The position numbers were made by a program, and so were the translations under genes. The notes under the pieces were generated by a model. That model was not told the origin of the DNA, searched no databases, and saw nothing but the letters and a program-made list of their open reading frames with translations. Shown here one piece after another: positions 26,001 to 64,000 of a stretch of DNA of 64,000 nucleotides. Numbering within the stretch: position 1 is the first letter of the stretch; each line of letters opens with the position of its first letter. The DNA comes from Betaproteobacteria bacterium (GTDB taxonomy: Bacteria > Bdellovibrionota_B > Oligoflexia > Silvanigrellales > Silvanigrellaceae): positions 1 to 64,000 of the forward strand of contig VGHE01000005.1 of the NCBI GenBank assembly GCA_016868315.1. Reading direction: 5' to 3'.

Positions 26001-29000
26001 TGGCGCTGGTTTTACCTTTGAGCGAGCCACTGACCACTTCCTCAACTCGCATCTTCATGCTGGCATTGTAAGTTTTTGCCCCGCTCACGGTTGTTACATC
26101 TTCAGCATCTACAACCGTCAATTGGTCAGCCAACGATTGGAATGTAACTTCCAGTGGCACGCTCAGAGCTGCACTCACGTAACGGCCAGTTGTGAGTGTC
26201 ACACCTGAACTCAGACTTGGCGGCTGGTTCACAGCATCCACCTTCACTTTTACGGTGGCCACCTCAAGCGAATTATCCGCATTGTCGTAAGCCACGAAGC
26301 GGAATGCAGGAAGACCTGTCGCGTCGGAGTTTGTATTTGCTGCTGGAGTCCAAACAATTGCTTCGCCTGGGCTCAACAACCGGTTGGGTGAGAGCGTACC
26401 CACCGAGGATAGAGTTGTGCCGTTCGGCAGAGTGATTGTTCCACCATCGAGATGCGTCAGGTTAATGTACAATGGAGTGCCGTCGACGTCGGCTGCATTT
26501 GCGAGAGCCAAAAGGTCTGCTTGTGTGATGCGCAGAGGCACATTCTGTTTTGTTCCGAGGCTCATGCCGGAGACACCCAAAACAAGATTGACATTTGCAG
26601 CTGCACCGCCAAGCGTCGCGCTCAAAGTTGGCTTGTCGTTTGTGCCATCGACCTGAATCTTTATGTCACGTGTTTCAGAGCTACAATTATTGGCATCGCA
26701 AATCCGCACTTTCATCACTGTAAACAGGCCAATGGCGTTCGCAGGAGGAGTCCAATTGAAGGTGTCATACTTCTTATTGGGAACATCTGGCGCAGACGCA
26801 AAACGCGGCATGTCTTCAACATTCGCAAGAGAGGTGACAACCGTTCCTCCATTGCCCGCGCCCATGCGCAAAGTACCGGAGCCAACGCCTTCCACTCGAT
26901 ATTCGATATTATTGAGCTCAACATCGCTTCCTGGAACAGCCGTCGACAGCTGTGAGAAGAGAATATCGCGGCCGCCAATCACATTCTTTGCGGTATTCTG
27001 AGCCAACTGAAGCGATGCACCCGCGGTATACGTAGGTGCGTCGTTCAAAGCGGCGACATAAGCTTGCACCGATCGTGTTCCGGCGTTTCCACCATTATCA
27101 ACGCTCGGTGAGCCCTCGGGATCTTTCAATCGAACCGTGAAAATGTCGACGGGCAAATTGCCAGAGCCGCTGGTGTTATTCGGACGTGTTGTTCCGTTCA
27201 CATTCAGTGGTGGTGTCCAGATAATGCTATCTCCGGGCACGATATCCAATGGTAAATTACCCGAAGTGATGGTTTGGAGGCCGGCCAATCCACTCTTCTT
27301 GTATGTGCCCACATTCGGCATCGACATAATCTGGTATGTGACTGTTCCCGACTCAATGTCTTCGCCTGGATAGTTGGTCAATAGATTGTTGTAAGTAATG
27401 ACATAAGGAACATCTTCAACCGCGTCGGCAAAAATAGTACCCGCAGCAGTAAATTGCGGAGCAGTGTTCACTTTGGTTGCGTTGAAAATCACGGGTACAC
27501 TCGCAACACTTTCCTGAACATTCGCAGCATCAGGAGCTGAAGGAACGAAATAAGCTGTCACTGCAAAGCCTACAACTTTGCCGTAGGTACCGGCTGCAGG
27601 AATCCAAGCAATGCGATCGGTGGATTCAATGTAAGTATCTGAAGTTAAGACAGGGAGAGCTAATTCGGCTGCACCCGTTGTTCCCAAGGGAACCTTCTTC
27701 AAATCTCCACTCGCCGAGATGCTCTTGATCTTGAATTTAAGCTTATTGGTTGAGGTTTCGTCGGAATCTTCGGCATCAGTCTTTGTGCGAAGCTCGTCGT
27801 ATGTGAAATAGAATGTTTGGCCTTGCGTTTGGCCGGTAAATTCATTGACTTTGGTGAGTGTTGGAATCTTATATTGAGCTTTCAGATCAATCGAAACTGT
27901 CGCTTCATCCGTGTATGCGCTGCCATCGTAACCACGCACCTTGAGGAACGGCACAACACCCTTGGTTGTCGATGTCGGAATAAAGAAGACTTCCTGACCT
28001 TCATCAATAACCTGCAATTCGCTCGTGGGAGCAAAAACCGGAGCGGTGCCGTGCGCAGTGACGGTTTGAGAGCCTTTGCGTAGAGTCCCGCCTGCAATTC
28101 CCGTAATTACAAACTGACGCACAGAAGAATCGGTATCACGCAAGCCAAGGCCAATATTTAGGTCGAGCGGATCTGTCAGGTCGGCAAATTGAATACGAAC
28201 CGTCTCACCTTGTTTGTAATCAACCTCAACGCCCGAAACTTTACGATTCGGCAAAGGTAACGTGTACCGCGCTAGTGTCGGTGAAGCGTTGCTGCCACTG
28301 ATTAACATGGTCACTGTTGCAATCGTCGAGGAAGACAGTCGTTTAATGGGATCAGAACTATCAGTTGCATAGGTCTTACCGCTGTCCTTCACACTTAACT
28401 TAAATGCAACTTGTGAGCCCACAACATTGGTTGGAGGAGTCCAAACAAAGCTTTCACCAGGTTTAACTTCTCCACCCACAGTGAGGCCAGACGTGTTGCC
28501 GCCCGAGAGAAGCTGAAGCTGGCCACTGACCACTTCTTCAATCACAAAAGCCATATTTGCATCATAAGTCTTTATGGTCGTGCCAGTGACGTCCTCAAGG
28601 TCAGCAACACTCAGCTGGCCCGCAAGACTTTCAAAAGTCACCGTTTTCGTCACGGGCGTAGGGCCGCTGTTGCGATTCGCGGTCAATGTGACAGCAGAGC
28701 TGAGTGTTGGAGCTTGGTTGCGGCCATTCACAACCACAGTCACAGTCGCCGTGAGATCAGATTGATCTTGGTTGTCGAAAGCTCGGAACTTGAATGCAGC
28801 CAAGCCCGTTGTAGCATTCGCACTCTTGGTATTTGTCGTTGGAGTCCATGTGAAATAATCACCAGGACCAATTAAGCGCGGCGTTGAAAGTACACCAAGC
28901 GAACTCACGACTGAACCATCGGCGAAGGTCAGCGAACCGCCATCCAAGCTTGTGATGTTGAATTTGGTTGGTGTTTGATCGACGTCCGAAACCTGCGAGG

Positions 29001-32000
29001 TTTTGAGCAACGTTTCGTGGTTAATGACCAAAGGAACATTCTGCTGCGTGCCCACAGAAGCAGTACCACCCGCTCCCAAAATTGTCGTTCCCAACGTGAT
29101 GCTCGTTACATTCAGAATAGGCTTATCGTTGATACCATTGCGTTGAATCTTCACAAGCTGTGTGATCGGTGAACAATCTGTTGCATCACATGCACGAACT
29201 GTCATGACAGTGAGTTCGCCTGTCACATTCACAGGTGGAGTCCAGGTCAATGTATCGAATTTAGCACTTGCTCCCCCGGGAGTTTGCACAACTCGTGTGC
29301 TCAATGGAACAACCGGATTTGCACCACCGGTCAGTGTTCCTGAGCCAACGGATTCAATACGATATTCAACCGCATCATTATCAGCATCCGTCACAGGAAG
29401 AGCTGTTTTGACCTGCTCGTAAGTTACAGCCAACGTCGCAGTCTGCTTGTTCGTGGATGGCAAGTTCACGATCGGCGTACCATACAACGGCACATCATTC
29501 ACAGCCGCAATATTTACCAGAACGTCGCGTGTCGCAGTGCTCACACCACCATTGTCGTCAATGAGCCGCACGGTGAACGCCACGGTTGCGGCAGCCCCGC
29601 CCGGCTTGTTGTTTAAGTTGCGATTCAGAGGTGGAGTCCAGAGAACACTTTCACCCGGACGAATCACAGTGAGACTTCCTGCGGTGATGGCTGTATTACC
29701 CTTAAACCACGATAGCCCATCGCCCAGGCCAACAATCTGATAGCCCAAAATTCCAGATTCAAGATCTGTACCGGCCAAACCTGCGCTGGCAAAGAGATCC
29801 TGATAAGAGATGTAGAATGGGCTGTCTTCCGAGGCACCGGAGAGGGTGTTGCCCGCGTTCAGGAAAGTCGGGAGGCTGTTCACAGGATTCACTTGCACAC
29901 GCACGGTCAGAGGGGTCATGGAGACCGCATCGCTTGAGTCCAGTGCAACGATGTTAAACGCAGGCAGAAGACCGCTCTTGGTTCCAACTTCTTCCCATTG
30001 ATACGTTTTGCCATGTTCAAGAACGCTATTTTCGACCAGGTTCGTTGGGTTGAAGGCTGAACATGCGGATGTCGTGCATTCTTTCAGAGTTCCATAAACA
30101 TCGTTCGAACCAATCTTAACAATCTTAAATCTCAAACGCTTCGTTGTATCAGATGGCGCATTGGTTTCCTCAAAGTCAGCCGCGTTTGTCAGATTGCGCA
30201 GAGTGGTGAAATCAAATTTGAATGATGTATTGAGGCTTGCAGAACCCTGAGTTGCAGGGCCCAAATTCGACACACTCGTAAGAGTCGGAATTTGGTTCTG
30301 TGCATCGATCTTCACCTGAATGGTGCGTTCAGCAGAGTATGCCAACGCATCAAATGCCTGCACCCGAATGAATTCAACCGCGGTGCCGGTGACCGTGAGG
30401 TTGGGCAAGAACACAACCGTCTCGTTTGGATTGATGAGCGCCGAGCCGGAGGGCGAAACGGTCGGTGCCGTGGTATGCGCAACCATCGCAACCGAACCTT
30501 TGTACAAAGTCCCGTTCGCAATCGAAGTCACCATCAGCGGCACTGAATTTGCAGCGCCATCGGGATCCTGCGCACTCACTGCAGAACGCAGTTCTTCGTA
30601 GGTGAAGGCTTTGGGAGCACCCTGGGTCATCTTCAGCGCATCTGCCAACACAACCGGATTCGTTGCACCGATGGTGGGGGCCTGATTGCTTCCGGTGACC
30701 AACACGTAGACCTTCGCAACTTCGGCGCTTGCCAAGTAGGGTGATGCCACTTCAATCACTCGAACAGTGAAAGCTTCGAAGTTGTTGGTCGCATTAACAG
30801 GAGGATTCCACGTCAGTTTGTTGTTTGTTGAATTAAGAGTGTTGTTCGATGCTGACAGATTCGTTTGGGAACCCGTGGGGCCAATTTGAATTGCAGCGGA
30901 ACCACTGAGCTGGGATTCAATCTTGAAAGACAAATTCTGATAGCGCGTCGTGAGGTCGGAAACCGCACCACTCACAGTTTCATCCGCAACACCGAGCTTG
31001 CTCATCAAATCGCCAAAGTCAATCGTCAACGCTGTGTTGCGATTGGTTGCATAAGTGTAGGAATCGTTCATCGTTGGCGCTTGGTTCGCCTGGCTCACAT
31101 CCATTGTCAAAGTGATTTCTGAAGTGGAGTAATCGAGCCCGTCATAGGCTTTCACCTTCAGCACTTCAACCGCCGTGCCAGCGTCGGTGGGCGTGTAAAC
31201 AAGCTGGCCACCAGGCGAGAGCACGGCCGAATTGTTCGGTGACGCGCTGCCGGTGTAAGGCACCACAGCATTCAATCCATTTTTCCAACTGCCTTTGGGA
31301 ACAGCGGTGACGACATAGCTCACAACCGAGCTATCACTGTCGTTCAAAGAAGACTGCAGCAACGCATCGAGGTTTGTGTAGGTGAGAGTTACAGGTATGT
31401 TTTGTGTTGCCAGCACAGCCGCGGGACTTGCACCTGCAGTGGTCCAAGGAACCGTGATGCTTGCATTCGTTCCGAGGCTCGCTTTGAACAGAGGCTTGAA
31501 GTTTTCGCCATTGACAATTGATACAGACACAACCGCGGTGGTTGGGCTCACCAATTGCTCACTATCCACAACACTCACCTGGAATGCGGCAAAGGGTCCG
31601 CCTTTGGCATTGGTGGGAGGATACCAATACACTGTGTCGCCAGTTGAAATAGTCTTATTCACACTGTCAACAGGAATTGCGGAGGCTTCGCCGGTCGAGC
31701 CATACTTCAGGTTCTGACCAGACATGCGTGTGTCGATGCGCAGCTTCACAGCGTCGTAATAGGTTCCTGCAGCAGCGGCGGAAGCTGGCTTCGCACCCGT
31801 AATGTCCTCAACATCGGTCACGTTGAGGCTGTGCGCCAGCTCTTTAAAGGTCATGGCGAAGACTTGGTTGCGAGTTGCGCCCGTGAAGGTTGTTGCCGCA
31901 TCGAGTGCCGGTGCTTGATTGACAGAGTCCACTTTTACCCGAAGGGTTGCAAACGAAGTCGATTCTTCCGCATTGTCCCACGCCACAAACTCAAAGGCCG

Positions 32001-35000
32001 AGAACACGCTGTCGGTTGCGGCAGCACTGTTCACGTTCGCCTCAGGGGTCCAAGTGAAGTACTCACCAGGGCTCAACACAACCGGCTGGATAAGATTGCC
32101 AACACCGTCCTTGGCACTTGCAGAATTCACTGTGCGACTACCGTAAATAACAGTACCACTCAGGATCTTCTTAATTCTGAAGTACAATGGAGTTTGATCG
32201 GTGTCGGCAGAACCCGATTTTTCAAGCAGCAAGCTGTGCGAGATCACGACTGGAGTGTTTTCCACTGTTCCAGTTGTTCCAGCCGTCACTCCGAGCGAAA
32301 TCGTGCTGACAGCGAGAGTCGGTTTCGCATTATTACCACTCACCGTCGCACGCAATTCAACCGTGCTCACCGAGAAATCGGTGCCATCGAATGCGCGCAG
32401 GGTTGCAATGACAAAAGTTCCGGTGGCGTTCAGCGGTGGAACCCAGAAGAGGCTCTGACCACTGTAGGCCGAACTGCCTGTACCGCTCAGGCGAACGAAT
32501 TGTTTTGGATTCAGCGCAGCACCTGAGTTAATGAGGGTCGCCACATTCGAGGCTGCCGCACTTGTTCCGAGGTACAGGGTACCTGAATTCACACTCTCAA
32601 CTTGATATTGAAGGGCATCGTTCTCTTGGTCGGTGACCTGCACAAATCCATTGCTGGTGTTGTTCTTTAGCTGCGCCCAAGTGATCGTGATGCCCGCATT
32701 CGTGCCAGGGTTTTTGCTCGCTGCGAATTCTTGGGTTGCACCAAACACAGGTGCATCGTTCACAGCTGCTGTGAGCACTTTTACGGTCTTCTGTGTTGCA
32801 TCGCCACTGGCAAGGCCGGCATCATCCACTAATTGAACCTTGAACGCCTCTAATCCGTTCGTGGCTTCGTTGGCATGCAATGCAGGTGTCCAGGTGATGT
32901 ATTGACCCGGTTGCAGTACCTCAACAAACGTTCCGCTAGCACTTGTGTAAACAGTGCCAGATGAGGTTCGCAGCGAACCTGTCTGTACCTGTGTAATCTT
33001 GTAGCTCAGCACTCCACTTTCAACATCTGTGCCACCGTAGTTTGTGGTCAGCATTTGGTGAGAGATTACAAACGGAATATCTTCGCTCGCACCGGCGAGA
33101 GGTGTGTCGGTTGCAGCAAAGGTAGGAGCTGTGTTGGTCGGCGCAATTTGAACATACACTGGGATTGGAGCAACACTTTCCAAGGCAGGAGATCCAGCAT
33201 CGACAGCCATAATACTAAACGCATTCAAGCGACCGCTGGCATTCACCGGAGCTTTCCATGTGATAGTTTCGCCAACCGCGATGTCGTAACCAATGGGAAG
33301 CGGGTCGAGTGCCGAAATTGCACCATCGACTTTACGTGCCAAAGTGCCCGAGGTAATCGCCTTTATGCGGAACTTCAATTGAGTTGTGCTGCCAGCGAGT
33401 GTTTCTTCAAAGTCAGACGCATCGGTCAGCGCACGCAAATTAGCGTAAGTGAATTCTTTGGTGACATTGTTTAAAGTGTTTTCAACGCCACCCGTGATGT
33501 CGTTTACATACGAAAGCAGTGGAATTTGGTTCTTCTTGGCAATCTTCACATTCACCGGAGCCGTGACTGTCGAATAGCCTGAGTTAGATGCATCGAGCGT
33601 GCCATCAAACGCACGGACATTGAACAATGCATAGGGCGTAGCATCATCTCCGACGTTTGCATTGGGAATAAAGACAACAGTCTCACCGGGGACTATGAGC
33701 GAAGATGATGGAGGCGCCGAGAGATCGGTGTAAGCCGTCATCGTCGTGGAGCCCTTCTTGAGAAGACCCTTCGATGTATCGATGCTGGTGACGACAAACG
33801 AGAAATAAGCTGGGCTGAAATCTGCATCGTTTGCATTCAAATAAGCTTTAATCGCATCATAGCTGATGGAATAAGGCTGACTCTGAGTTCCAACCGTTGG
33901 TAGGAACGTGCCCGCTGCAGCAGCTGTTAGCGTGGGTGCTGTGTTGGCATCGCCATTGACCGTCACTGTCACCTTGCCCACCTGAGTGCTACCCAGTGAG
34001 CTGCCGTCGAGTGCAATCATATAAACAGCATCAAACAAGCCGGTTGCGTTCGTAGGTGGTTTCCAGAACAAACTTTGAGTCGAGGCAATCTCGTTGTTGT
34101 TGATGGGATCATACAAAGCCGCAGCAGCCGATGCCGTTGCCTGACTCGTGCCTCCACCCGAGGATGTACCAATGCGGATCTCAAGGCCTCCGAGTTGTTT
34201 CTCAATACGGAACTTGATTGGGCTGCCTGCAAAATTCGTTGTTCCCACAGGTGCGTTTTCGCGGTCGACAACATTCAAGCTCGTTGCACCCGTCGCAAGC
34301 TGGGCAAATGTAATTTCACGTTCAACATTGCGAGAGGTGATGTAATGAGCCGAAGGACTGATAGTTGGTGCTTGATTGACTTTGGGTATAAGCAGTTTCA
34401 CCAACACCGATTGCTCAGAATAAGCTGAGCCGTCGAAAGCAAACACTTCCATGATGGTGTATGGGTTTGAGTCGTGAGCAGCATTGGCATTCGGATTAAA
34501 CACCACCGACTCACCCGCGGCAATCACCGAGCTCGCATTGGGAGCAAGGCTGCCACCTGCACTTGCAAACGGAACAATCGACACTCCACCCTTCTTAAGG
34601 GACCCGTTCGAAACACTCTTGACAACAAAAGCAAGATAGTCGTTGTCGGTTTTGTTTGAGTTCAACTGGCTAAAGAGATAATCGTAGCTCAAAGTGTAGG
34701 GAGTATTTTCTGCACCGTTCACTCCCAGTTGTTTCTCAACAACATTCGCAGTTCCGGTTGCAGTAAAACCAGCTCCAATAATGGGTCTCTGATTGTCGCC
34801 ATAAACAGTGATCTTGACCCGCGCACTGGTTGCACTCGGACGATTGTCGCTATCAATTACCGACACAGTGAACGCATCAAAGGTTGTTCCGTTGAGAGCG
34901 TTGTTGGGTGAAGTCCAAACAAACTTCGAACCATTCACAACAAGATTGTTACTGCTGGTCACAGCAGAACGCACACCACCAGAACTTTCAATCTGCAAGC

Positions 35001-38000
35001 TGCCACCTGCAAAAACTTCATCGATGCGGAAAGTTAACTTCGTCTTGTCGGTGAGATCTTCAACATCTGAAACAATCAGCTTATCGAACAACTCAGAGTG
35101 GGTAATCACCTTATCTTGATTGCGATCTGCTCCGTCTGAGGTGCTGCTCTTGAATTCATACTGAGCAGCCAGTGTGGGTGCTTGATTCACAACCTGCACC
35201 TTGACAACCACCGTGGCTCTCGCGTTGGCCCCTGTCGATTCGAGCGCATTATCCCAAGCAGCCAATTCGAAGGCATTTTGATCGCCATTGAGATTCGCGT
35301 CGGGAGTCCAGGTGATGTATTCGCCGGGGCCAACCGTCACGGGAGTCACCAGATCACCCGAGCCATCCACAGCACTGCTACTGTTCACAGTGCGTGCACC
35401 AAAGACAATCGTACCACTCAAACGTTTCTTAATACGGAAGAACACAGGAGTTTGGTCAGAATCCGCAGCACCCGAGCCATTCAAGAGTGTGCCATGGCTA
35501 ATCACCAATGGAACGTTTTCTTGGGTTGCGGGTGCAGCATTTGTGCCCAAGGTGAACGTGGTTACTGAAAGCGTGGGCGCTGCATTTCCACCCGTTACAT
35601 TGACACGAATTTGCGCTGCCGTTGCCGAGAAGTCTGTTCCATCGAAGGCGCGCACCACGGCGACAAGATATTCACCGGTTCCATTCTGTGGCGGAACCCA
35701 GAAGAGTTTGTCGTTCGTGTAGGTTGTTGGGGAATTTGTCGACTTGAGGCGCACCAACTGCTGAGGACTTGCGGCCTGACCTGAAGTTAAAAGCGACGCA
35801 ACCGAAGGCGATGATGCGTTTGCACCGAAGTACAGGCTGCCATCGCCGACACTCTCAATCACATACTCACGCAACGAGATGACGCTATCCACATCATTGA
35901 TTTTCAACTTGCCAGTAGATGCATCCGAGAGTGTGCTCCAACTGATTTCAATTCCAGTGTTCTTCGCTGTGGTGTGAAGATCCGATGTCCCCAGAGATGG
36001 GGCATCATTGATTGGAGCAACAAGAACCTCAACCACTTTCGCTGGCAATGTTACACTCGCAAGACCACCGCCATCCACAACCTCAATCGTAAACGCCGCC
36101 TGTTTGTTGGTCGCATGGCTTGTGTTTGCGGGCGGAATCCACGTGACGTACTCACCTGGCCTCACCACTTCCAGAAGTCCACTCGCTGCCGTGTAGGTTC
36201 CGGTTGATGTTTTGAGTGTGCCAGAGGAGACTCCGGTGATTCTATAGTTCAGAACGCTCGATTCGACATCGAGCCCGGGGTAAGAATTCATCAACATTTG
36301 GTGTGAAACAATGAACGGAATGTCTTCCTGAGCACCAGCCAATGGACCAACGGCGCCCGCAGTAAACTCGGGGGCAGTGTTGGTCGGGTCAACCTGAATA
36401 TGCACAGGTATCACCGCAACACTCTCTGTGTCGTCCGCCGTTCCAGCGGTGGCATCCAAACCTCTGTCGCGCGCTACAACGCTAAAGACATTGAAGCGAC
36501 CTGTACCATTGAGCGGAGCTGTCCATTTGATCGTATCACCACTGGCGATATCATCACCCGCAATCATCACCGCTTTGTTGCGCGTGTTGTCTGCTGAATT
36601 ACTTCTTTCCAAAGTTTGTGTTGTGATGGCCTTCACGACAAAGCGGACTGTCTTGGCATTTGCTGCTTCTTCGAAATCAGCCATATCCGTGAGAGCACGC
36701 AGTTCATCGTATGTGACCGCTTTAGAGAAATTGCCTGAAATATTTTCAACACCACCGGTGATGTCATTCACATAGGTAAGCGTTGGAGCTTGATTGATGG
36801 CAACAAAATTAATTTTGACTGCAGCGTTTGCGTTGTAAGTGATCGCATTGCGAGTCTCATCCGTTGAATATTCAAGACCATCAAAAGCACGCACGGTAAA
36901 TGCATCTGTGATTCCTGAAACACTCGCAACCGGAATAAAGACCACCGACTCCCCAGGCGCAATCACCGCGGTGCCATCGGGTGATCCCGTGCCGGTGTAG
37001 GCGGTCATTGTTGTACCACCCTTCCTCAGGACTCCCTTCGTGGTGTCAATGGTTCTTACAACAAACGAGAACCACGATGGCGTGAAATCTTCATCATTTG
37101 CGTTGAGGTAAGTTCTCAAAGCATCGTAGGTCACAATGAAAGGTCGGCCTTGCTGACCCTGTTGTGTCAATGCAGGATTTGCTGCCTGCAAGACAGGTTT
37201 GGTGTTGCTGCCATTGATATTGACCAACACCTTTGACCTGTCGCTGGTTTCGAGTCCGGCGAGGTCCACAGCAGCAACTTCGAACATTTCTTTAAGGCCG
37301 CTGACGTTCTGCGGTGGTGTCCAGAACAAGCTTTGGGTTGGGCCGAGGAACTTATTTGAAGAGCCGAAGCTCGTTGCTGCCGCTGCCGCCGTCGCAATCG
37401 CGGCGTCGGTGCTTGCGGTCGCTGCAGTACCGATCTTCAAGGCTTGCCCTTCAAGCATGCGTTCAACGCGCAACTTCATGTCTTTGAAGTCAGGAGTTGC
37501 TGCATTGCAGTCGGGCACATCTTCGCGGTCACACACGCGCAGGTCTTTGGCCAAGGTTTCGAATTTGATTTCAACGATGCGGTTGCGAACACCGGCATAC
37601 GTAAACGTGCGCTGATTACCGGACGCAATCGCAACATTAAAGTATGGAGCTTGATTCAATGCATTGACCATCACGCTCAACACAGCGGTGTTGTCGGAAA
37701 GGTCTTTGTTGTCGGTTGCCTTAAATTCAAAGGCCTGTTGTTCCACTGAATTCTTGCTTGCAAGAGCTGCGGGGGTCCAAGTGATGAATTCGCCCTCACG
37801 AAGCGTCAGGGGCGTATCAATGTTTCCTACGAAGGAAACAACCCGGGTTCCGTAGGTGATTTTACCGCCATTGAGCTTGGTGATCCGAAACGACAGCGGG
37901 GTTTGATCAGAATCTGTTGCGCCCGACCAGCTGAGCAAATCAGCATGCGTGATAACACGTGGCAGACCTTCGTCGGTACCAACAGTTCCTGCCGTACCTC

Positions 38001-41000
38001 CTGACACGCCAAGTTGGATGAGCCGCAGTGTGTTTACCGGCATCTGATTTGAAACAATCACGGGCTTCGCGTTGCTGCCATCCACAAACACCCGCACATC
38101 TGCGGTACTGACTGTTGTTTGCAGGTCTGCATCCAGTGCACGCACAACAAACGCTATGTATGTGCCGGTTGTATTGAGCGGCGGAATCCAGAACACGTCG
38201 GTTCCACTGGTTGCGCTTGAACCGGATGGAACGATTGTGATGGTTTGCTGCTGGCCCGTGATGTCGGGCGAGCTTTCCAGGGTTCCAAGTTTCAATTGCC
38301 CTACACCAACCGCTTCAATGCGGTACACGATACTTTCGGGCGCAGTTTCAACATCCGAGACTGGCAATGCAGCTCGCAGATTGGTATGGGAAATAACCAT
38401 TCCAGTGTTCTTGGTGCCATCCAGCGTGAGCTGAGGAGAACCAAACACAGGTGTGTCATTCACCGAGGCAACTATAATGCTCACTGGATGCGCAACAGCA
38501 GTGAGTCCAGCAGCATCGGCGACCTGAATCGAGAACGCGCTACCCACGGTGTCTTTCACATTGTTTCCTGCAGCGACCCAGGTGAGCTGCTCGCCCGGTT
38601 TCAGGGTGAAGGGCAAATTCGCAGGTCCGAGTGTGAGCGCGGCAGTCTTCAATTGACCTTTCGTTGAGTCAATAGACGTGATGCGATAATTCAATGTGTT
38701 CGACTCGACATCTATGGCAGGAAGAGCAGCAGCCAGCATGCCATGGGTCACAATAAACGGCGTGTCTTCCAATGCTCCCGTGAGAACTGCAGCAGGCGAG
38801 GCCGAAGTGTAAAGCGGAGCGCTGTTGTTGTAAGTCACGTCGAAATAAACAGGTAGTGTTTGTGCACTCTCTGCCCGACCCGTTGGGATGGCAGGGAAAG
38901 TGCCATCGGCGTTGCGTAAGCCCGCATCCTGCGCAACCACACTGAAGGGGCTGAAACGGCCACTTTGATTTTGCGAGGCATCAGGAGTCCAGCTCAGGCC
39001 CGTTGATGCGGTCCCATCGCCGTTGCTGAGCACATCGGTGGGTTCAATTGGGTCGCCCACGTTGAGGACTGTTGCTCCACGCTTGATGGTCCCGCCACCC
39101 AAGGATTTAATCACAAATCGAAGATTTTTGGGACTCGCAGGTTCTTCATAATCCTGTGCATCGCTCGCGTTGCGCACATCGTTATACGTGAAGGGAATTG
39201 CTCCAGGAACGGGGAGTGTTGTTGAGCCCGTAGACACCCGCGATGTTGCCTTCGCTATTGCTGCAATGCTTGTGAGCGTTGGAACCTGATTTATTGGGTT
39301 TAGAGTTATTTTAACAATCGCTTCAGTTGCAGAGTAAGCAGCACCATCAAAGGCACGCACTTTAAAAAGCGTTTGCGTGCCAACGAGATTGCTTGCTGGG
39401 ATAAATGTCATCGATTCGGTTGGAGCTAAAACAGCCGTCGCCGGTGCGGTGAGTGGAATGCCAGTGAAGGCTGTCATTGGAACACTGCCTTTGCGCAACG
39501 CTCCTTTACTCGAATCGATATTTGTCAAAACAAGTTGGATGAAGGTGCCGTCGGTGTCAGTCAAATTCAATGCCGACTGTGCCGCGAGATCGCTGTACTT
39601 GATTTCGTAGGATGCATTCTGCACACCATTAGCAATGGTGAACTCGGGTGCAGCAGCATCGGCAGCAATCTTCGGAGCCGCATTGGTGCCAGCAACAGAG
39701 ACAACCACCTTGCCCACTGTTAAACCAGCCAAGCCGGCGCTGTCTTTAACACTCACCGTGAACGCATCAAAACTGGTGGCGATGTTTTGCGAAGGAAGCC
39801 AGTAAACACTTTTGCCTTCAATCAATTCGAAGGCATCGAATGCGGAGAGACTTTCGAAGCCTGAGGTCACACCCTCGTTGCCAATCTTGAGGCTCTGCCC
39901 ACCAAGCATCTGTTCAATACGGAAGCTCACTTTACAGTGTGGCTTTCCGGTTGGGCAGCAGGTCGGTGTCTCGGCGCCTGTGCACACAGATAGGCCAGCA
40001 ACATCTTCTGCGTCGGTGGTTCCCAAACCGCTCGCCAGATCTTTGTGTTTGATTTCCAACCATTGATTGCGTTGGCCATTGGTATTTGTGTACAGCGGTG
40101 AGACTTGCGGCCGCTGATTTTGCGCATTGACCTGCACGTTGATGGTTGCGGGTGAACCCGCTGAATAGAGTTGCCCATCATACGCATAAACCTTCAACAC
40201 CGCAGTCGCGCCTGTTGCAGTGCTCACAGGCGTGAACAAAATCGTTTCACCAACGTCGACCAATCCAGATGCCAGCGGCGGAGTGTTTGTGCTGGTAAAT
40301 TTCGCCAAATTAGTTGTGCCTTTGCGTGCCGTACCGTTTGTGATGTCGTGAAGCACAAACTTCACAACACCCGTATTGTCGGGATCCTGAGCACCGGTCG
40401 CGGCCAAGAGCTGAGCATAGGTGATTGTAAAAGGTGTGTTTTGTGTCGCAGTTGTGAAGGCCGACGTTGCCGGCGCAAGGTTCGCAATGGTGGGAACTTG
40501 ATTGCTTCCGCTGACCTTTACACTCACTTTCGCCAAATAGTTGCTGGGCATTTCCTCGGAATCAACAACACGCACAGTGAACGCTTCAACCGTCTCTGCC
40601 AGATTTGTGGGTGGCTGCCAGAACAGGCTCTTGCCTGGGATCAGGGCAAAGTTATCCGAGGCGAATGCCGTTGCTGCGGAGACGTTTGATGCAGAGTTTA
40701 TTGGGGTCGATGATCCAATCTTGAGTGATTGCCCCGAGAGTAATCCCTCAACATGAAGTTTCAGCTTGCTAAAGTCAGCGGTATAGTCTTCAACATCGTT
40801 GATCTGCAGCTTGGTCGCAAGGTCTTCAAAGGTTATTTCAAGAAGCTCATTGCGTGCTACGCTCGTATTACGCACCACACCAGCATCCACCACTCGCGCA
40901 GCATCATAAGTGACCGCTGTGAGCATGGTGGGAGGCTGGTTAACGGGAGCCAAATCCAAGGTCACCACACCCACTTCGCTTGAATACATGCTGCCGTCGT

Positions 41001-44000
41001 AGGCACGCACTTGGAAGAGTTCGCGCAAACCATTCACATTGAGTTTTGGTTGAACCGTGATGGTCTCTCCGGGGGCAATCAATACAGTTGGGATTGCCGT
41101 CACCGTATCCAGAACACCTGCATTACAATCGTTACTCGCGTTTTGCGGCTGAAGTACGAGTGCGCCCTTGCGAATGCTCTCAACCGCAATCACATTATTT
41201 GCGCCAGCAGTAGGGTTCTGCACACCTGTGATGTTTGCACAGCTAATAACAAACTGCACCAAGCTGCTATCGGCGTCGCTCGGATTGAAGGCTGTTTTTA
41301 GGTCATCGTAAGAAATTTGGAACGCAGTGTTTTCGCGTGCTGGATTTGTTGCTGTTCCGAGTAACTTTTTCGTTGCGGCAGTCAAAACAGGGCGCTCAGT
41401 GCTGTTGTAAACTTTAATGTTTACTGCACCCAGGTTTGCACTTGTCGTCAGCTCAGAATCGATTGCGCTGACCCGGAACGCCTGAAAGGTACCGACTGTG
41501 TTTGCAGGCGGCATCCAGAAAAGATACTGATTTTGATTTACCACCCGAATGCTGTTGTTCAGTAACGTTGCGGCCGTTGGGCTCGTCGTGCTGCCAACCT
41601 TGACCCACTGCCCAGAAAGAACATCTTCAACACGCAGCTTCATTGCGGTGTATTTAGTAATATCAGCAGTTTCGTTATCCTCAAGGTCACGCACATCGAG
41701 TTGTTTCATCAGGTCTTTGACTTGGATCATAAAGACAGCGTTGCGTGCCACCGCGCCGGCGGGTGCCGGATTAGGTGGATTATAGAACGGTGTCTCAAAA
41801 GTATAATTCTGTGCAAGAGTCGGCGGCTGATTCACTGGCGTGATTTTCACGCTGACAGCTGCTTTTACGAGAGAACTTTCAATGCCGTCGAACGCACGGA
41901 ATTCAAATGCCAATGGAGTTCCTTTTGCATCAGCTCCGCTCGCATCTGGCCGCCAACTAAAACGCTCGCCCGGGCCAACCACTGGCGCAGGATTCAAGTC
42001 GCCTGCAGCATCGGGTGAATCTTTTGTGTATGAGATGTTGTTGATCGTCAGTGTACCGCTGCGAACCTTTGTGAACCTAAACGACACGGCTGTTTGATCG
42101 GGGTCAGACGCGCCTGTCTGTGCCAAAAGCGTATCGTATGAAACATACATCGACGAGTTTTGGTAGGTGCCGGTCGTACCCGCATCCACACCGAGTGTCA
42201 CGAGGCGATCTGTCGCAGGTGAGGCCGAGGCTGCGATCACAGGCTTAGCATTGCTGCCCGTGACATTCACGCGCACCACTGCAGTTGAAACGCTGAAGTC
42301 AATGCCGTCGTAAACGCGCACAACCATCACAGGCATTTCACCAATCGCGTTGAGTGGCGGTACCCAGGTCAGTTTCTCGCCCTCGTTGTCTGCAGGGTTT
42401 GCCCTCGATTGAAAGATAAAGGCACGCTTTGGAACCAACCCACCGACGCTGTTTGGGTCCAGAGGTAGGCTGTTGACATCAACACCGTTGAGGAAAAGCT
42501 GGCCGGACTCAACCGATTCAACCCGGAACGAGAGTGCGCTGATGTTCGCTGCATCAACGTCAACATTATTCAGGATGGAATCCAAGAGAACGCTTCTCAT
42601 GTGTTCCCAAGAGATCTCATAGGCTGGTGATGTCTGGTTCTGCGCAGCATTGCTGCCCAACTTCGCAGACGCCACTTTGAACTTAGGCTGGTCGTTAACG
42701 CTTATAATATTCACGCTTGCTGTTCGGGCTATCTGAGCACCATTCGTACCAGCAGCGTCCACATGCTTATACGAGAAAATCGATTGCACTCCGTTGATGT
42801 TCAACGAAGGCCGATAGGTTAAAAATTGGCCAGGCTCAAGGAACACACCCGTATTGATATCACTTGTTGTGAGCTTGATCGCACCCTTCCAAATTTCGCC
42901 CGCGCTTCCCAAACTCTCAATCTTGAAGCGAATAGGCTCTGCCTCAACGTCACTTGCAGGGTCAGAAGCAAACATCATGTCATAACTAATCACATATGGC
43001 AGGTCTTCCATGGGGGAACCAATGGACACCGGCGTCGTATTTGTTGCAACAGGCACATCGTTCGTGGGCCTCACGTTGACAACCAACGGCAATGAGACTG
43101 CGCTCTCTCCGCATTGGTCATCTACCGCAATAATTCGGAACGCTTCGAGCTTCCCGAATTGGTTTTGAGCTGGTGTCCATGTGATGGAATCGCCATTGGG
43201 GGTGTTCGTATCACCGGGATAGAGGAACTGGTTGCGGGTTTCACCGCACGGTACGGTGCCCACCGTCATGTTTGCATTGAACACGTAGCTCTGTGTTCCC
43301 GCGCTCTGCGAGACAATTTTGAAGCGCACCTTTTGAGTGCCTTGGCCACTCTCAACATCTGAAAGGTCTGTAAGCGAGAGCAGCTTGGCATAGGTGATTG
43401 TCAGCGGCGCGTCTTCATCGGTTGCATATGAGCCAGTTGTTGCACCTTCCAGAGTGTTGATGCGAGTCAACACAGGGATGGTGTTCACCGGCGTGAAAAT
43501 AGCGCTAATCGTTGCCGATTCATGGGTCTGAGGTGTTCCCAAGGGGTTGGCTGTCGTGACCGAAGTCGGCGCCGCAGTTTGTGAATAAAATTCTCCATCC
43601 CACGCGCGCACCGTGAAAATCGGCAACGTCCCGTTGAGATTCGCTGTTGGAACAAAGGTCACCGATTCATTGGGCGAAACGAGCGCCTGAGATATGGGTG
43701 CTCCTGAGCCTGCATCGGGCACAATGGTCTGAGTACCCTTGCGCAGGGTGCCGTTGCTGACCGAGGAAACTACAAATGAGAACCACACGTCGCTATCGCG
43801 ATCGGATACTCCCAGCGCTGCTTTGATTTGATCATAAGAGATCGTTAGGCCTTCGTTTTCAGCCTTCGTAGCCGCAGTCCATGTTGGCACGGTAATCATT
43901 GGCCGATACTTGCTGTTGTCCACATCAACTTGAACCAATGCCGTGGTCTGGCTCGAGCGCGCTACTCCAGCACTATCGGTTCCATTGTCGATGGCAGTCA

Positions 44001-47000
44001 CAACAAATGCGTCGAAACGACCGGTTACATTGTTCGGAGGTTTCCAAAACAACCTTTTGCCTGGGCCGAGAATATTGGTGGTGGGATCATTTGTGTTAAC
44101 AGAAATCGAAGTTGCGCTAGCCCATGTCGATGTGGAATTGCCAATCTTCATGCCCAGACCACCGCGAATCTGGCTGATCTGGATCTTCATATTTGCGTAA
44201 TTACCGGCAACAGCAACATCTTCGTTGTCTTTAATATCAAGCGCGGCAGCCAAATCCTCAAAACTGACAAAGTAATCGGGCTCATTGTTTGAGTTCGAAT
44301 TGCGCTGTGCCACTTTGCTTGCTTCGGTAGCGAACGAACTCGAGACTACGGATGTTTTGAGTGTTGGAGGAAGATTCACGCCCGCCACGGAAATCGCAAC
44401 TGTTCCCTTGGCGGCCACGTCCGAATAACCCGCACCGTCGTAGATTCGGAAATTAAACACATTGATGGTGCCCTTCGAATCCGCTTCTGCGAGCGAAGCC
44501 GAGGGAATGACCGTGAGAGTTTCGCCTGGTGCCAAGACTGACACTGCGGGTGCGCTTGCAGGTGATGCATTTGTGTCAGCATCCACAAACGCGCTCAACG
44601 CAACAGAGCCTTTTTGAAGTGTCCAGCCTGTTGTGATGTTGGTTATAACTACAGCGCGCCAGTCGCTATCCGTGTCTGCAACATTGTAGTGCGTTTTCAT
44701 GTCATCATAGCTGATTGTAAACGGTGCATACTGCAAAGCCGCGGGAACAATCGGAAGCGGGTTTGCGTTCGTGGCCATCGTCGGAAGCTTATTAGACCCC
44801 GTCACAACCACCCGCACAAGCGCTGAGTTGGCGCTTGCCAAGTTACCGCTGTCGATCATCGTTACCGTGAAGGCATCAAAGGTTCCAACGCCGTTTCTGA
44901 TTGGGCTCCAGTACAGGTTCTCGCCCGCCTTGAGCTCGTTGTTGTTTGCCGAGAAATCGACCGCAGTGCCAGACGCAGCGCCAATTTTCAATTCCTGGCC
45001 AGAGAGCCTATTGTCTATACGGAATTTCACATTCGCTGTGTTGTTTTGATCTTCAACATCGGTAAATCCGAGCTTAGTGATAAGGGTTGAAAAGGGAATC
45101 TCGAACTGTTTGTTGCGCTCGTTGAAGTTGCCAGCTGCAGCCAAACCATCCGCACCTGCACTCAACGTTGTGCTTGCGTTGATTTTGGGTGCTTGGTTCA
45201 CACGGTCAATCCAGATCCTGACAGTTGCAACGGGTGATGTACTGAGCCCCGCAACTGGTAGAGTGGCACTCGCATCGGCAGCGTTGTCGGTGGCAACAAC
45301 CTTAAATGCAGCGCGTGGTGCGGCAGGGTTTGTGAGTTCGCTGTGAGTTTCGCTCCTTGGCTTCCATATGAAGCGCTCACCGGGTCCAACAACCGGGACA
45401 GGGTTTGTAACGACTGTACCGTTTGTTGAACTGATAAATGTGATGGCCGAATTGCTCACCTCGAATGTGTTGTTGCCAACAGTCAATGTTCCTTCTGTCA
45501 ACTCGGTGAAACGGAAATAAACAGGCTGGTCATCCGGATCCACCGCACCCAGCGCGGAAACCAAAGCTGAATGCTCGATGTAGGTCGGAACATTCTGTTT
45601 GGTCAGCCCTGCTCCTTGCGTGCCCAGGGAAACTCCTCCCGCAGACAGCACACCGGCACTGAAGGTGGGCTTTTGATTGTTGCCTGTAATGCTCACAACC
45701 ACAGGCACGGCTTGCGCGCTATATGCCTCTGGGTTTTGTGCATCCACAACGCGCACGAGCATCACCGTGAATTCACCGAGCGCGTTGCGCGGTGGCTCCC
45801 AGCGGAGGATATCCGAAGTGGAATCGAGGCTGTCGGTATTTGCCGAAATCACGCGTGGCCGCGTCGTCTGGTCGGCCGCATTCGGGCTGTTCGAAGCACT
45901 CCCCATCCGAACGACGCCTGCATTCACATTCTCAATAATATACTGAATTGTATCTGTGTTTGTTGTTTCGACGTCTGCAACCGGTATTGCCGCCTTCAGA
46001 TCCGAATATTTAAATATGAAGGCCGTATTCTGAGCTGCATCTTTCCAGCTGCTTGAGCCGGTATCGAAGGCTTGCAGCTGATATTTTGCTTTGGGCGTAA
46101 TCATTGGCGAATCATTCACCGCTGCAACTATCACATCCACATTCTTGCTCACGCTCAGATTATTTCCTGCGTTCGAGGAGTCTTTGATTTGCAGTGTAAA
46201 CGCTGCGGATTGCAACGCGTTGGCATTCAGCGCTGGCGTCCACTCAAATGTTTCGCCCGGGAGGAGTTCGAGAGCGGTGCCAGGATTATAGGTCACAGCA
46301 CCTTTTTTGAAGACGGCGCAATTCGAGCTACACGCGGGTACATTGATGCGATATGCAAGAGCTCCAGGCTCTTTTGAAGAATCAAAACCTGCCGCATTCG
46401 GTTCATCCGAAAGCATCTTATAACTGATAATGAACGGAGTGTCCTCAACTGCGCCACTGAACAGAGCCGTGTTCGCATTGGAGAATTGTGGTTGATCGTT
46501 GACAGAATTCACTGTCACTTGCACTGGGAGTTCTGTGACACTCTCGCCACCTTCGCTATCACGCGCAACAATTGTGAAAGCTGTTAAGACGCCGTTGGCG
46601 TCAGTATCGGGTGTCCAGCAGTAGTCGTTGGAAACACTTGCAGTCGCGATAATGTCTTCCACAAAACTCGCCGAATAGTTCGCAGCTGTACATGCTAAAG
46701 CAGGGTCAATCTTCTTCTTCAGCGAACCACTCACAACACTCTTGACGCGGAACACCAGTGTTTGTGTTCCCTGCCCGACCTCAATATCCGATTCATCTGT
46801 TAGTGCGGCGAGTTTTTCGTAATCAAACACCAATGGAACATCTTCACTGATTGCATCCCCACCCTTAAATTCGGGAATCTGACTCATCAGGGGAACCTGA
46901 TTGACAGGTGCTAAGCTCAGCCGAACTGTCGCTTCACCAATCGAGTAGCCACGGCTTCCTGAAATAATGCCATCGCCACTGTCCACCGTGCCATCGAAAG

Positions 47001-50000
47001 CACGGACTTTGAACATAACCGGTGCACCGTTGGTATTATTTAGGTTCGCATTGGGCATAAAGACAAGAGTCTCGTTCTCACCCACTCGCGAGGCTGCAGG
47101 TGCTTCAGTTGTCGTTCCCGTGAAAGGAGTCACCGTCGAGCCATTCTTTTTCAAAGTTCCGTTTTGCACATCGACATCGGTGATGACAAACCAAGTTGTG
47201 TCGCTGTCTGGGTCGAGCGCAAGAGCAGTTTCATTTTTCAGTGTTGCCCACGTCACCAAATACGGTTCGTTTTCCTTCGCACCGTTGGCGCTGCCCAACG
47301 TGATATCGGTGATTCCAAGAACAGGTCGAACATTAAAGCCCGTGACATCGAAGCGATAAAGCCCCGTGCTCGCACTGTAGAGAGCATTTGTGGGGTTGTT
47401 GAGAACATTTCCGCTTCCATCGGTTGCCACCACGCCTGAACGGTCGCGCGCCGAAGCACGGAAACCAGCAACAACGCCGGTGAAGTTGCGGGGCGGAGTC
47501 CAGAAGAGATATTCACCTGGTGCCAATGGGACTCCATTGCCTATTTCGCTCGCTCCTACACCCGATTGATTTGTTCCCTTTCTCAAGGAACCAGCGACGA
47601 TCTCTTCAACTCTGAATCGAATGTTCGCATATTTAATCGCAGGGTCACTCGATGTTGTGATGACATCCTGCGGATCGGGATCCGTCACGTCGAGATGCTG
47701 TGCTAACTCATAGAATGAAACGGCAAGTTCGGTGTTTCTTGTGGCTGCGCGAGGCGCTGTATTTTGCGCGAGCAGCGCAGGTGGCTGATTGACCGGCGAC
47801 ACATTAACTTTGACTTCGCAGTTGCTCGATGCTCCCTGGTTGTCATACGCACGAATCACAATTGCATCACGTGCCTGTGCGCCTGTACCAAACACCTGTG
47901 CAGGTGGTGTCCAGACAATTCTCTCGCCTGGGCTCACGAGCAAAGGCGAGCCATACTGCTGCGCCGTGCTATAGGTTGTGTTTCCGACTTTCAGTGAACC
48001 GGCTTTTAACTCAACGATCTGGAAGTAGAGCGGAGTTTCATCTTGGTCTGCTGCACCAGATGCTGCAAGGAGCGTATCATAGCTGACTTCCAGTGGAACA
48101 TTCTGGGTGGTGCCGACGGTCGCAGGTTCAACACCCAAGGTGATATTCGCCTTGATGGTTGGCGGGTAGTTCGACCCTGCGACATTGATTTTAACATCGC
48201 GCGTGGTTGCGGTGAGGTCACCATTTTTGTCGCGCGCGCGCAGGGTCATAATCGTGTAATCGCCGGTCGCATTTTTGGGCGGCGTCCAGTTGAGTTCGGT
48301 GACGTTGTTGCCATTCGAATTTGCCGACAACAAAACGGCTTTGTTCGGTGCCGCAATCAAAGTGACATCGTCCCCATTGGCCGCGCTGCCCAGCACCAAC
48401 TTTCCTGAGTTTACACTCTCAATCACATATTCGATTTCGTTTTGCGTGTTTTCAACATCCGTCACAGGCAAAATCGCTGCAATCTGCGCGAAGGTAATCA
48501 CTCTTGCTTCATTCTTATTCGCACCACCGATGAGGAGACCAGAAGAGGCATTAGGAAGCACAGCCGTGGGCGCAGCATTTGTGAAGCGTGGTTGATCAGG
48601 AACCGCATCGACCTGAGCCTGAACGACCTGCGACGCAACACTTTCGCGCGGCGTTTGGTTTGTGTCCCGCAACTTCACGGTAAAGACGTTGAGCAGACCA
48701 TTTGCCGTGAAATTCTGATTTTCCGGTGGCGTCCAGGTGACACGCTCCCCTGGAAAGATGAACACGGGCGGAATAACAACATCATTGCCCTTCTTCACGC
48801 TTCCGGCCACGTTGACAGCCGTGATCACATAGGTCAGGGTTTCACCCGATTCAACGTCCGTTCCGGGATAAGAATTCTTCAAAGCTTCATAGCTGATCAC
48901 GTGCGGAATATCTTCACGGGCGCCTGTCAGGTAACCTACGTTCGGTGCAACAACAGCGGCAAATTCGGGAGCGTTGTTGAATGATGCCGTCTCAATATAG
49001 ACAGGTATGGGCTGGTCGCTTTCTCCACCATCCACATCCAAAGCAACGATGCTAAAGGCATTGAGAAGACCATTGGCATTGAGAGCTGGTCTCCAGCTCA
49101 AGCCGGTTCCGGTTGTACCATCGCCATTGCTCAATGTATCTGAGGGCGTGATCTCAGCACCAGCCACAAGCTCTGTTGAACCACGGAAAAGCTTACCGCT
49201 GTTGATACTGACCACTTTAAATTTAAGCGTTGGGGTATTTACAGGCTCTTCCAAATCATATTCATCGGTCGCTTTGCTGCGCAGGTTCAAGTAATTGAAT
49301 GGGTAGTTTTCGTTCTGATTTGCACCTTCCAGCTTTGAAATAGCAGTCAGCCTTGGACGCTGGTTCACGCGCTCGAGCTTAATTGTAATGGTCGCCTGTT
49401 TGGTGTTGTCTGAGGCAACTTGGCCATCCCAAGCCAGCACTGTAAAAATTGGAATGTTGTTGTTTCCAGCGTTCACACTGTTTAAGAACTGCGTCGGGAT
49501 GTAGGTTAAGGTTTCATTCAGGTTAAATAAGTTTACTGTAGGATTAACATTCTGAATTGTTGGGTCAGCCACAGGCAACAGCTTCTTCGCTCCGACCTTC
49601 AATTCACCGTTCGATATAGAGGTAATCACCAACGAAGCCACGGCATCATCATCGTCGAGAACCCCAAGCCCTGTAATCGCGGCAGAAAGATCGGCAAAGG
49701 TGATCTGGAACGGCTGGTCTTGCTTACCCGTATCAAAGTGTTTGGAGAAGCTTGTAAGGCGCGGAGCGATATTGCTCCCAGACACAGTCACCTGAACTGT
49801 GCCGAGCGCAGAACTGGGGCGGTTGTTACTATCCACAACTCGCGCGCTGAATGCAGCAAAAGTGAGGACACCATTGTAGGGCGGCTTCCAATAGATCGCC
49901 TCCCCCTGATTCAAAGTGGTGTCTGTAGGCTGCTGCACTGCTTCGGGGTCAGCGCCTCGGGTTAGAATCTTGAGATACTGTCCACTGAGCTGGTTAATCT

Positions 50001-63350: not shown

Positions 63351-63381
63351 GAGTTCGTCTCCGCTGGGAAGACCAACAGTC

Positions 63382-64000
63382 CTACACAGATTCTGCGGTT
63401 TGAACAAGTTTAATGAAAGCCCGCAGAGCCGCATCGAGCTCGCTTGTCACCTCGGTGAACTGAAAGCCAATACGGTAGAAGTTCTCGCGCATTTGCATTT
63501 CGTCGGAACTCGGCAAGAGCTTCAAACGGTTGGCAACGATACGCTGGAGATCGTTGTAATTGCCTTGCATCACGGCTGAGGTGGTTTTCTTGGTCCAGCG
63601 CACCGAAACATGCACAGCGATCGGCGCTGTGCTGGGGAGAAACAAATGCGCCTTGAGCTCGTCTTCATCGGCTCGGAACAGGTCTGCCACCGCCGCATAG
63701 CGTGTAAAGCAAGCCACTCCACCGAGACTCACGTCATCGAGCCGCACTCGCGCCGATGATGAGGTTTCGTCGCGCAAGAAGCGCGGGATAAAGGGAGAGT
63801 CAAAACGCTCCAACTCGATCCGGCGATCAGGAAACTCTAGAAATGCCGCGCACGAGATGGGTACCCGAAAACGCGAATTCGTGCGTCGCTCGAATGCTAC
63901 GAGTTTCTCAGGGATAGCAAGCAAGATTTTACCTGGTACGCGCTGCTTGATTTTGGAGACGAACACAATCTTCTTCGACAGCAGAATGAATTCGATACGC
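63382..64000 (-). CDS. PilZ-domain (YcgR-like) protein, 5' end beyond the right edge
   Basis: The frame is open to the right edge, so the true start lies outside. A GTG at 63966 is only an internal codon option. The visible 200-odd residues begin with a beta-rich segment (EFILLSKKIVFVSKI, ILLAIPEKLVAFERR) like the N-terminal flagellar-brake domain of YcgR. A PilZ domain follows with both c-di-GMP contacts: ERRTNSRFRV (RRxxxR) and DDVSLGG (DxSxxG). The C-terminus (FYRIGFQFTEV...LDAALRAFIKLVQ) matches the PilZ end. The expected role is c-di-GMP-responsive control of motility or surface structures. It lies 31 bases before the cNMP-aspartase gene. Confidence 0.85.
   Translation of the reverse strand, partial: RIEFILLSKKIVFVSKIKQRVPGKILLAIPEKLVAFERRTNSRFRVPISCAAFLEFPDRRIELERFDSPFIPRFLRDETSSSARVRLDDVSLGGVACFTRYAAVADLFRADEDELKAHLFLPSTAPIAVHVSVRWTKKTTSAVMQGNYNDLQRIVANRLKLLPSSDEMQMRENFYRIGFQFTEVTSELDAALRAFIKLVQTAESV

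What the first reader, a model, noticed from the sequence alone, without database searches (positions are those of the whole stretch)
30298..44376. Cycle length changes only in domain pairs: E-F expansions
Four of the 19 cycles carry one or two additional E-F pairs (six, eight or ten domains), all in the 30-44 kb part of the gene. No single extra domain was seen. E-F therefore looks like an autonomous duplication or assembly unit.
Basis: seen in the sequence. Interest (0 to 1): 0.75.

Follow-up and report, generated by a model that had tools for sequence, protein, structure and literature searches.

The report
Giant cadherin-like protein, paired domain changes
An 18,161-residue bacterial surface-type protein is a chain of 133 cadherin-like domains in a repeating six-type cycle whose length really does change only by even numbers of domains, but a related species shows that the extra E-F pairs are old parts of inherited eight- and ten-domain cycles rather than freely jumping two-domain units.

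Summary
ORF 2017-56502(-) encodes 18,161 aa: a lipoprotein-type N-terminus, a ~320-aa helical region, then 133 contiguous cadherin-like domains. From d13 on they follow a six-type cycle A-F. Held-out HMMs place all 120 typed domains, and the ten extra domains are all E or F. Four of 19 cycles carry extra E-F pairs (8, 10, 8, 8 domains). A congener carries an orthologue in four contigs (168 detected domains). It has the same leading 4-6-8-10 order, and all species differences are even (10, 2, 12, 6, 6 domains) with no type mismatch. Parity is conserved: 0 same-parity neighbours in 274 typed junctions. The 'autonomous E-F unit' reading is only partly supported. Extra pairs predate the species split, are not measurably closer to the adjacent pair than to others, and group by register (EF1 with EF1, EF2 with EF2); a D-E pair was lost elsewhere. 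My best reading: what is kept is alternation of two junction classes, predicted calcium-holding (even to odd) and calcium-poor Gly-Ser (odd to even), combined with in-phase block recombination. The closest analogue is titin's 6- and 10-Ig super-repeats.

The parts
2017..56502 (-). 18,161-aa ORF (1.90 MDa), giant cadherin-like repeat protein
55543..56502 (-). N-terminal region: signal peptide with Cys22 (orthologue VVSGC lipobox), then an all-helical region unique to the genus
   Evidence: no Pfam match
50965..55539 (-). domains d1-d12, conserved one-to-one in both congeners, not in the A-F cycle
49366..50964 (-). cycle 1, partial: C-D-E-F (d13-16)
46903..49365 (-). cycle 2, six domains (d17-22)
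43486..46902 (-). cycle 3, eight domains (d23-30), extra pair d29E-d30F at 43486-44370
39292..43485 (-). cycle 4, ten domains (d31-40), extra pairs d37-38 and d39-40 at 39292-40941
   Evidence: conserved in the congener
36796..39291 (-). cycle 5, six domains (d41-46), probably a former eight-domain cycle; a 10-domain difference from the congener lies here
33532..36795 (-). cycle 6, eight domains (d47-54), extra pair d53E-d54F at 33532-34377
30298..33531 (-). cycle 7, eight domains (d55-62), extra pair d61E-d62F at 30298-31086
   Evidence: orthologous to G071-072
13501..30297 (-). cycles 8-14, seven six-domain cycles (d63-104)
11863..13500 (-). cycle 15, four domains A-B-C-F (d105-108): a D-E pair is missing relative to the congener
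2404..11862 (-). cycles 16-19, four six-domain cycles (d109-132)
2020..2403 (-). d133, divergent terminal domain

Best explanation
The gene encodes a very long, lipid-anchored filament of 133 cadherin-like domains. SHOWN: six domain types in a fixed cycle; strict odd (A, C, E) / even (B, D, F) alternation; all cycle-length variants and all differences from the congener even-numbered; the extra E-F pairs of cycles 4 and 7 older than the species split. INFERRED from statistics: a zone of eight- and ten-domain cycles was created early by one or a few E-F gains, and the eight-domain cycle then multiplied and shrank as a block by in-phase recombination, as whole six-domain cycles were recently duplicated in the congener. 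INFERRED mechanism for the even-number rule: the chain alternates two junction classes. Even-to-odd junctions (B|C, D|E, F|A, F|E) mostly keep an acidic position that corresponds in order to a cadherin calcium ligand, with N[DQ]xP linkers. Odd-to-even junctions, clearest at C|D and E|F, carry Lys/Arg at the first ligand position, mostly lack the second acid, and have Gly-Ser linkers. A|B is intermediate. Gaining or losing a pair joins two junctions of one class and keeps the alternation; a single-domain change would put two domains of one class together. Function (inferred): an extended adhesive or spacer filament, up to about half a micrometre at an assumed ~4 nm per domain, with alternating stiff and flexible joints.
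For: Typing and cycle. Zero same-parity neighbours in 119 (window) and 155 (congener) typed junctions. Profile comparison: the four best type pairs are same-parity (B-D, D-F, C-E, A-E), and E-F is the weakest. Orthologue architecture. Domain-array alignment with only even indels (10, 2, 12, 6, 6) and no type mismatch; alternative settings merge or split events, all even. Dyad tree and register test. No recent E-F duplication at DNA level. Junctions: Gly at the second-last linker residue after C/E in 30/42 against 3/77 elsewhere; acid84 and K/R20 alternate in both species, and the extra E and F domains nearly all obey the same code. AF2 model of C-D-E-F has pLDDT 91, with PDB matches to cadherin ectodomains. 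Ca-free cadherin linkers bend: PMC5120219, PMC8325961.
Against: Few independent sub-cycle events exist (about four), so evenness alone is weak statistics (about 1 in 16). Junction p-values count paralogues as independent; only six types stand behind them. Type A fits the odd class poorly, and d1-d12 do not alternate significantly (p=0.10). AU tests do not reject local duplication of each extra pair, nor one clade of all extra pairs. Calcium ligands were assigned by order along the domain, not from coordinates, and AF2 gives no ions.
Confidence: 0.58

Rival explanations
1. The even-number rule is only a by-product of recombination. Unequal exchange between like DNA stretches (same domain type or same junction class) keeps phase, and no structural selection against odd numbers is needed.
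For: All DNA matches between domains are same-type (26 of 26). Recent congener changes are whole 6- or 12-domain cycles. Block duplication of several domains, two being commonest overall, is the usual mode (PMC1553488).
Against: Same-type exchange explains whole cycles, but not the D-E loss or the E-F gains, which join different types (C|F, F|E). No cross-type DNA match was detected by blastn, so homology alone would hardly pick those joints today; the ancient state is unknown.
Confidence: 0.3
2. Avoidance of misfolding between like neighbours: a single-domain duplication would place two domains of one type side by side, which is selected against, while duplicating a pair keeps neighbours dissimilar.
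For: Neighbours average 24-29% identity, maximum about 41%, like titin's I27-I28 (24%, PMC4660218). E and F are the least similar type pair. The idea has been proposed for titin six-Ig blocks (PMC12241362).
Against: It does not forbid losing a single domain or inserting a different type, and neither is seen. Another cadherin-repeat protein of the congener has neighbours 50-64% identical.
Confidence: 0.3
3. One reading: E-F is an autonomous unit that duplicated locally and independently in each expanded cycle.
For: All gains are E-F. W037 and W039 are each other's best scorers within the window. AU tests do not exclude ancient local origins.
Against: Not sister in the best tree; extra pairs are shared with the congener at matching positions. 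Same-register grouping, no excess similarity of adjacent pairs, ordinary E-F coherence, and the D-E loss.
Confidence: 0.12
4. Assembly or typing artefact.
For: Repeats are prone to misassembly; the congener orthologue is in four contigs with four frame shifts.
Against: One open frame of 54 kb with diverged repeats. The leading 6-8-10 order recurs in an independent assembly. Held-out typing is unambiguous.
Confidence: 0.02

Closest known systems
Titin/connectin middle-Ig 6-Ig and 10-Ig super-repeats and A-band D/C-zone super-repeats (PMC12241362, PMC10665226)
   Same: Tandem beta-sandwich domains in ordered types; super-repeats of more than one even length (6 and 10 Ig) in zones; copy number changes by blocks between species.
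   Different: Ig/FnIII domains of a eukaryotic muscle protein, intron-bearing, no shared ancestry shown; here cadherin-like domains in one uninterrupted bacterial ORF, plus eight- and four-domain cycles.
Tandem-95 / Cadherin_4 / Cadherin_5 repeat proteins of bacteria
   Same: Domain family (Pfam above gathering) and NxAP linkers.
   Different: NCBIfam tandem-95 scores of the pieces are below its cut-off; a six-type cycle of diverged domains instead of an array of alike repeats such as those on congener contigs C46/C33.
Giant calcium-dependent adhesins: MpAFP region II (PMC4083281), LapA/BapP-type RTX adhesins (PMC12153261)
   Same: Very long chains of calcium-type beta-sandwich extender domains.
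   Different: MpAFP has about 120 identical repeats (abstract). This protein has a lipoprotein-type N-terminus, no GGxGxD repeats and diverged domains.
Long metazoan cadherins (PCDH15, CDH23, DN-cadherin)
   Same: Cadherin fold; mixture of predicted calcium-bound and calcium-free linkers.
   Different: In those proteins calcium-free linkers sit at particular places; here predicted linker classes alternate with domain parity.

Membership tests
Bacterial cadherin-like domains (Pfam Cadherin_4 PF17803, Cadherin_5 PF17892) | Score above the gathering cut-off | tested here: met
   47.7 vs 25.1 and 39.8 vs 26.5 in the N-terminal 1000 aa; 28.7 and 27.8 in a 2000-aa middle piece
Bacterial cadherin-like domains (Pfam Cadherin_4 PF17803, Cadherin_5 PF17892) | Cadherin-type beta-sandwich fold | tested here: met
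   AF2 pLDDT 91 for C-D-E-F; Foldseek E 2.8e-13 to C-cadherin; VIA-align Z about 8 (rmsd 8-11 over 275-370 residues, several domains at once) to CELSR1, PCDH15 and CDH23
tandem-95 repeat protein (NF012211) | Whole-protein score of 90 bits or more | tested here: inconclusive
   41.8 and 75.2 bits for pieces; the whole protein exceeds the tool's length limit
RTX adhesin (type I secreted) | GGxGxD nonapeptide repeats | tested here: not met
   0 occurrences in 18,161 aa
Lipoprotein | Signal peptide ending in a lipobox Cys | tested here: inconclusive
   Cys22 conserved in three orthologues; window YFGC is atypical, congener VSGC is typical; read by eye, no predictor run
Titin-type super-repeat architecture (works-like only) | Ordered domain types in super-repeats of several lengths arranged in zones | tested here: met
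Titin-type super-repeat architecture (works-like only) | Homology to titin Ig/FnIII domains | tested here: inconclusive
   No sequence match to titin in the PDB; a titin I-band chain is a fold-level match only, at TM 0.23

The most novel reading that the evidence does not exclude
A parity rule written into the chain: alternating calcium-clamped and calcium-free junctions make the domain pair the quantum of length change in a half-micrometre bacterial cadherin filament, so that evolution can lengthen or shorten it only in steps of two.
Probability: 0.3. Interest if true: 0.68.

Novelty: new variant of a known kind. Interest (0 to 1): 0.45.

Why it matters
Hierarchical super-repeats with zones of different cycle length are known from titin, where they follow muscle architecture. 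Finding the same layout in a single bacterial ORF, with a comparable congener, gives a second case in which to ask why repeat proteins grow by blocks. It also turns the question into one about junctions: two linker classes alternate with parity, which can be tested with two- and three-domain fragments.

Tried and rejected
Tandem Repeats Finder finds no array: the repeats are too diverged. A search for recent E-F duplication at DNA level found only short patches (69-93% identity) between same-type domains. AU tests of local duplication and of one clade for all extra pairs rejected nothing; three further tests did not finish. Hybrid check of d108: not a D/F chimera over the middle and C-terminal parts; the first 40 residues are uninformative. 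A sequence search of the PDB gave nothing meaningful. A parity test of d1-d12 gave only a trend (p=0.10). Searches for the repeat region in 55 other genomes of the class gave nothing. The third congener (G001) is cut off at its contig end after 13 domains.
Full report
WHAT IS THERE. The window lies on contig C5 of a 3.24 Mb genome. Its main feature is one ORF on the minus strand, 2017-56502, of 18,161 aa and 1.90 MDa. It starts with a signal peptide ending in Cys22. The congener has a textbook VSGC at the same place, and the Cys is conserved in all three orthologues. A ~320-aa region follows that AlphaFold2 models as eleven helices (pLDDT 75 from three sequences) and that Pfam does not know. 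An iterative HMM seeded from the N-x-A-P linkers then finds 133 domains end to end, up to the last residues. Pfam calls Cadherin_4 and Cadherin_5. A four-domain model (C-D-E-F, pLDDT 91) matches cadherin ectodomains. Close relatives named in the databases are a freshwater 'uncultured Silvanigrella sp.' MAG and a 'Proteobacteria' MAG.

THE OBSERVATION. Average identity between domains i and i+k peaks at k=6 (0.335; mean 0.25), and the even lags exceed the odd ones. Unsupervised clustering gives six types from d13 on. Type HMMs built without the extra domains, with leave-one-out for the rest, assign every one of d13-d132 to the expected type. The ten extra domains are E or F, alternating. Its F domain is F-like through the middle and C-terminal parts, so it is not an obvious D/F chimera.

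A SECOND SPECIES. The N-terminal region finds orthologues in the two other genomes of the genus. G001 breaks off after 13 domains. In G002 the orthologue runs through four contigs, whose domain phase fits at each break: d1-d12 one-to-one, then 4, 6, 8, 10, 8, 8, 8, 8 and six-domain cycles to the end. That is 168 detected domains; the contig order is inferred, and whole cycles hidden between contigs cannot be excluded. Aligning the two domain arrays gives differences of 10, 2, 12, 6 and 6 domains, with no type mismatch under five gap settings. Some settings split 10 into 8+2 or merge 6+6; all stay even. The two-domain difference is the D-E pair missing from cycle 15. The 10-domain difference falls in cycles 5-6, inside the expanded zone, where the window has a six-domain cycle. 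No member of the class outside the genus matches the repeat region.

HOW OLD ARE THE EXTRA PAIRS? In a tree of 54 E-F pairs the extra pair of window cycle 7 is sister to the extra pair of congener cycle 8 (100/98), and the first pairs of the same cycles are sisters (100/96). The three pairs of the ten-domain cycle each pair with their positional orthologue (81-92% bootstrap). So these pairs existed before the species split. The only pair of window cycle 5 is sister to the second pair of cycle 6 (100/86), which fits loss of a first pair. The tree is weak at depth: AU tests reject neither local duplication of any cycle nor a single clade of all extra pairs. Two tests that do not use the tree help. 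Adjacent pairs in a cycle are no more alike than other pairs of the zone (p=0.31 and 0.22). In the eight-domain cycles, first pairs resemble first pairs and second resemble second (p=0.0025; 0.013 without orthologue pairs). Eight-domain cycles therefore probably multiplied as blocks. Coevolution across E|F (Mantel 0.51) is not stronger than across other junctions (B|C 0.69, C|D 0.68). Within the zone it is lowest across D|E (0.15, n=11, not significant), the place where pairs come and go.

WHY ONLY EVEN NUMBERS? The six types fall into two classes. The best profile matches are B-D, D-F, C-E and A-E, and the worst is E-F. Type A is the least clear member. In 274 typed junctions of two species there is no odd|odd or even|even neighbour. 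Residues at the junctions follow the classes. After C and E the chain ends in a Gly-Ser type linker (30/42 against 3/77 elsewhere); E and A mostly start with NQ, C with ND. Four acidic positions occur in the same order along the domain as the cadherin calcium ligands XEX, DXD, DXE and XDX (motif set as given in PMC5120219; order in cadherins from general knowledge). The DXD-like and XDX-like Asp are nearly invariant in all types, except that the second DXD residue is acidic in only half of B. The XEX-like position is Glu in every B but Lys or Arg in most C and E; the DXE-like acid is present in 83-100% of B, D and F before C, E and A, and in only 10-52% of A, C and E. Odd-to-even junctions thus look calcium-poor and even-to-odd junctions more calcium-competent, with B|C the most canonical. 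The extra domains nearly all obey the same code. This assignment is by order and not by coordinates, and the counts are not independent, because the domains are paralogues.

SYNTHESIS. What is conserved is the alternation. A pair inserted at an even|odd junction (E-F) or removed between two odd|even junctions (D-E) preserves it; a single domain would not. Rivals are plain in-phase recombination, which explains the six- and twelve-domain changes but not the C|F and F|E joints, and avoidance of like neighbours, as proposed for titin's six-Ig blocks (PMC12241362). Neighbours here are 24-29% identical on average (two ways of aligning), near the 24% of titin's I27-I28 (PMC4660218). However, another cadherin-repeat protein of the congener tolerates neighbours of 50-64% identity. 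Independent sub-cycle events number about four, so evenness by itself is weak evidence; the class alternation and the junction residues carry most of the weight.

KNOWN OR NEW. Duplication of several domains at once is the rule in repeat proteins, and two is the commonest unit overall (PMC1553488). Titin has super-repeats of 6 and 10 Ig domains whose number varies between vertebrates (PMC12241362). The phenomenon is therefore of a known kind. A bacterial cadherin-like chain with a six-type cycle, zones of different cycle length and alternating junction classes was not found in the papers searched, and I file it as a new variant. Function is inferred only: a long, lipid-anchored adhesive or spacer filament. 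At an assumed ~4 nm per domain its contour would be about 0.5 micrometre.

Noticed in passing
L063 (G002 contig C46) and L064 (contig C33): The congener has another cadherin-repeat protein whose neighbouring domains are all alike (50-64% identity, regular spacing), in contrast with the six-type cycle here.
   Followed up: partly
L058, L060, L061: The G002 orthologue shows four frame shifts within otherwise intact domains; sequencing error or real decay cannot be told apart.
   Followed up: no
L061 (G145-G162 in the joined array): A six-domain cycle is present three times at about 53-83% identity, matching the single d121-126 of the window: recent whole-cycle amplification near the C-terminal end.
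   Followed up: partly
window 445-2013 (+): Fusion of SOUL heme-binding, SelR and PMSR domains (methionine sulfoxide repair) next to the giant gene.
   Followed up: no
window 61500-63434 (-): Fumarase-type lyase fused to an N-terminal cyclic-nucleotide-binding domain.
   Followed up: no
window 55543-56502 (-): All-helical N-terminal region (eleven helices, 64-80% identical among congeners) with no Pfam match; only weak matches outside the genus.
   Followed up: partly
all B domains, e.g. window 48580-48978: Every B domain (41 of 41 in two species) has Glu in the 'KED' motif and is mostly followed by an NDxP linker: the most canonical calcium-type junction in each cycle.
   Followed up: partly
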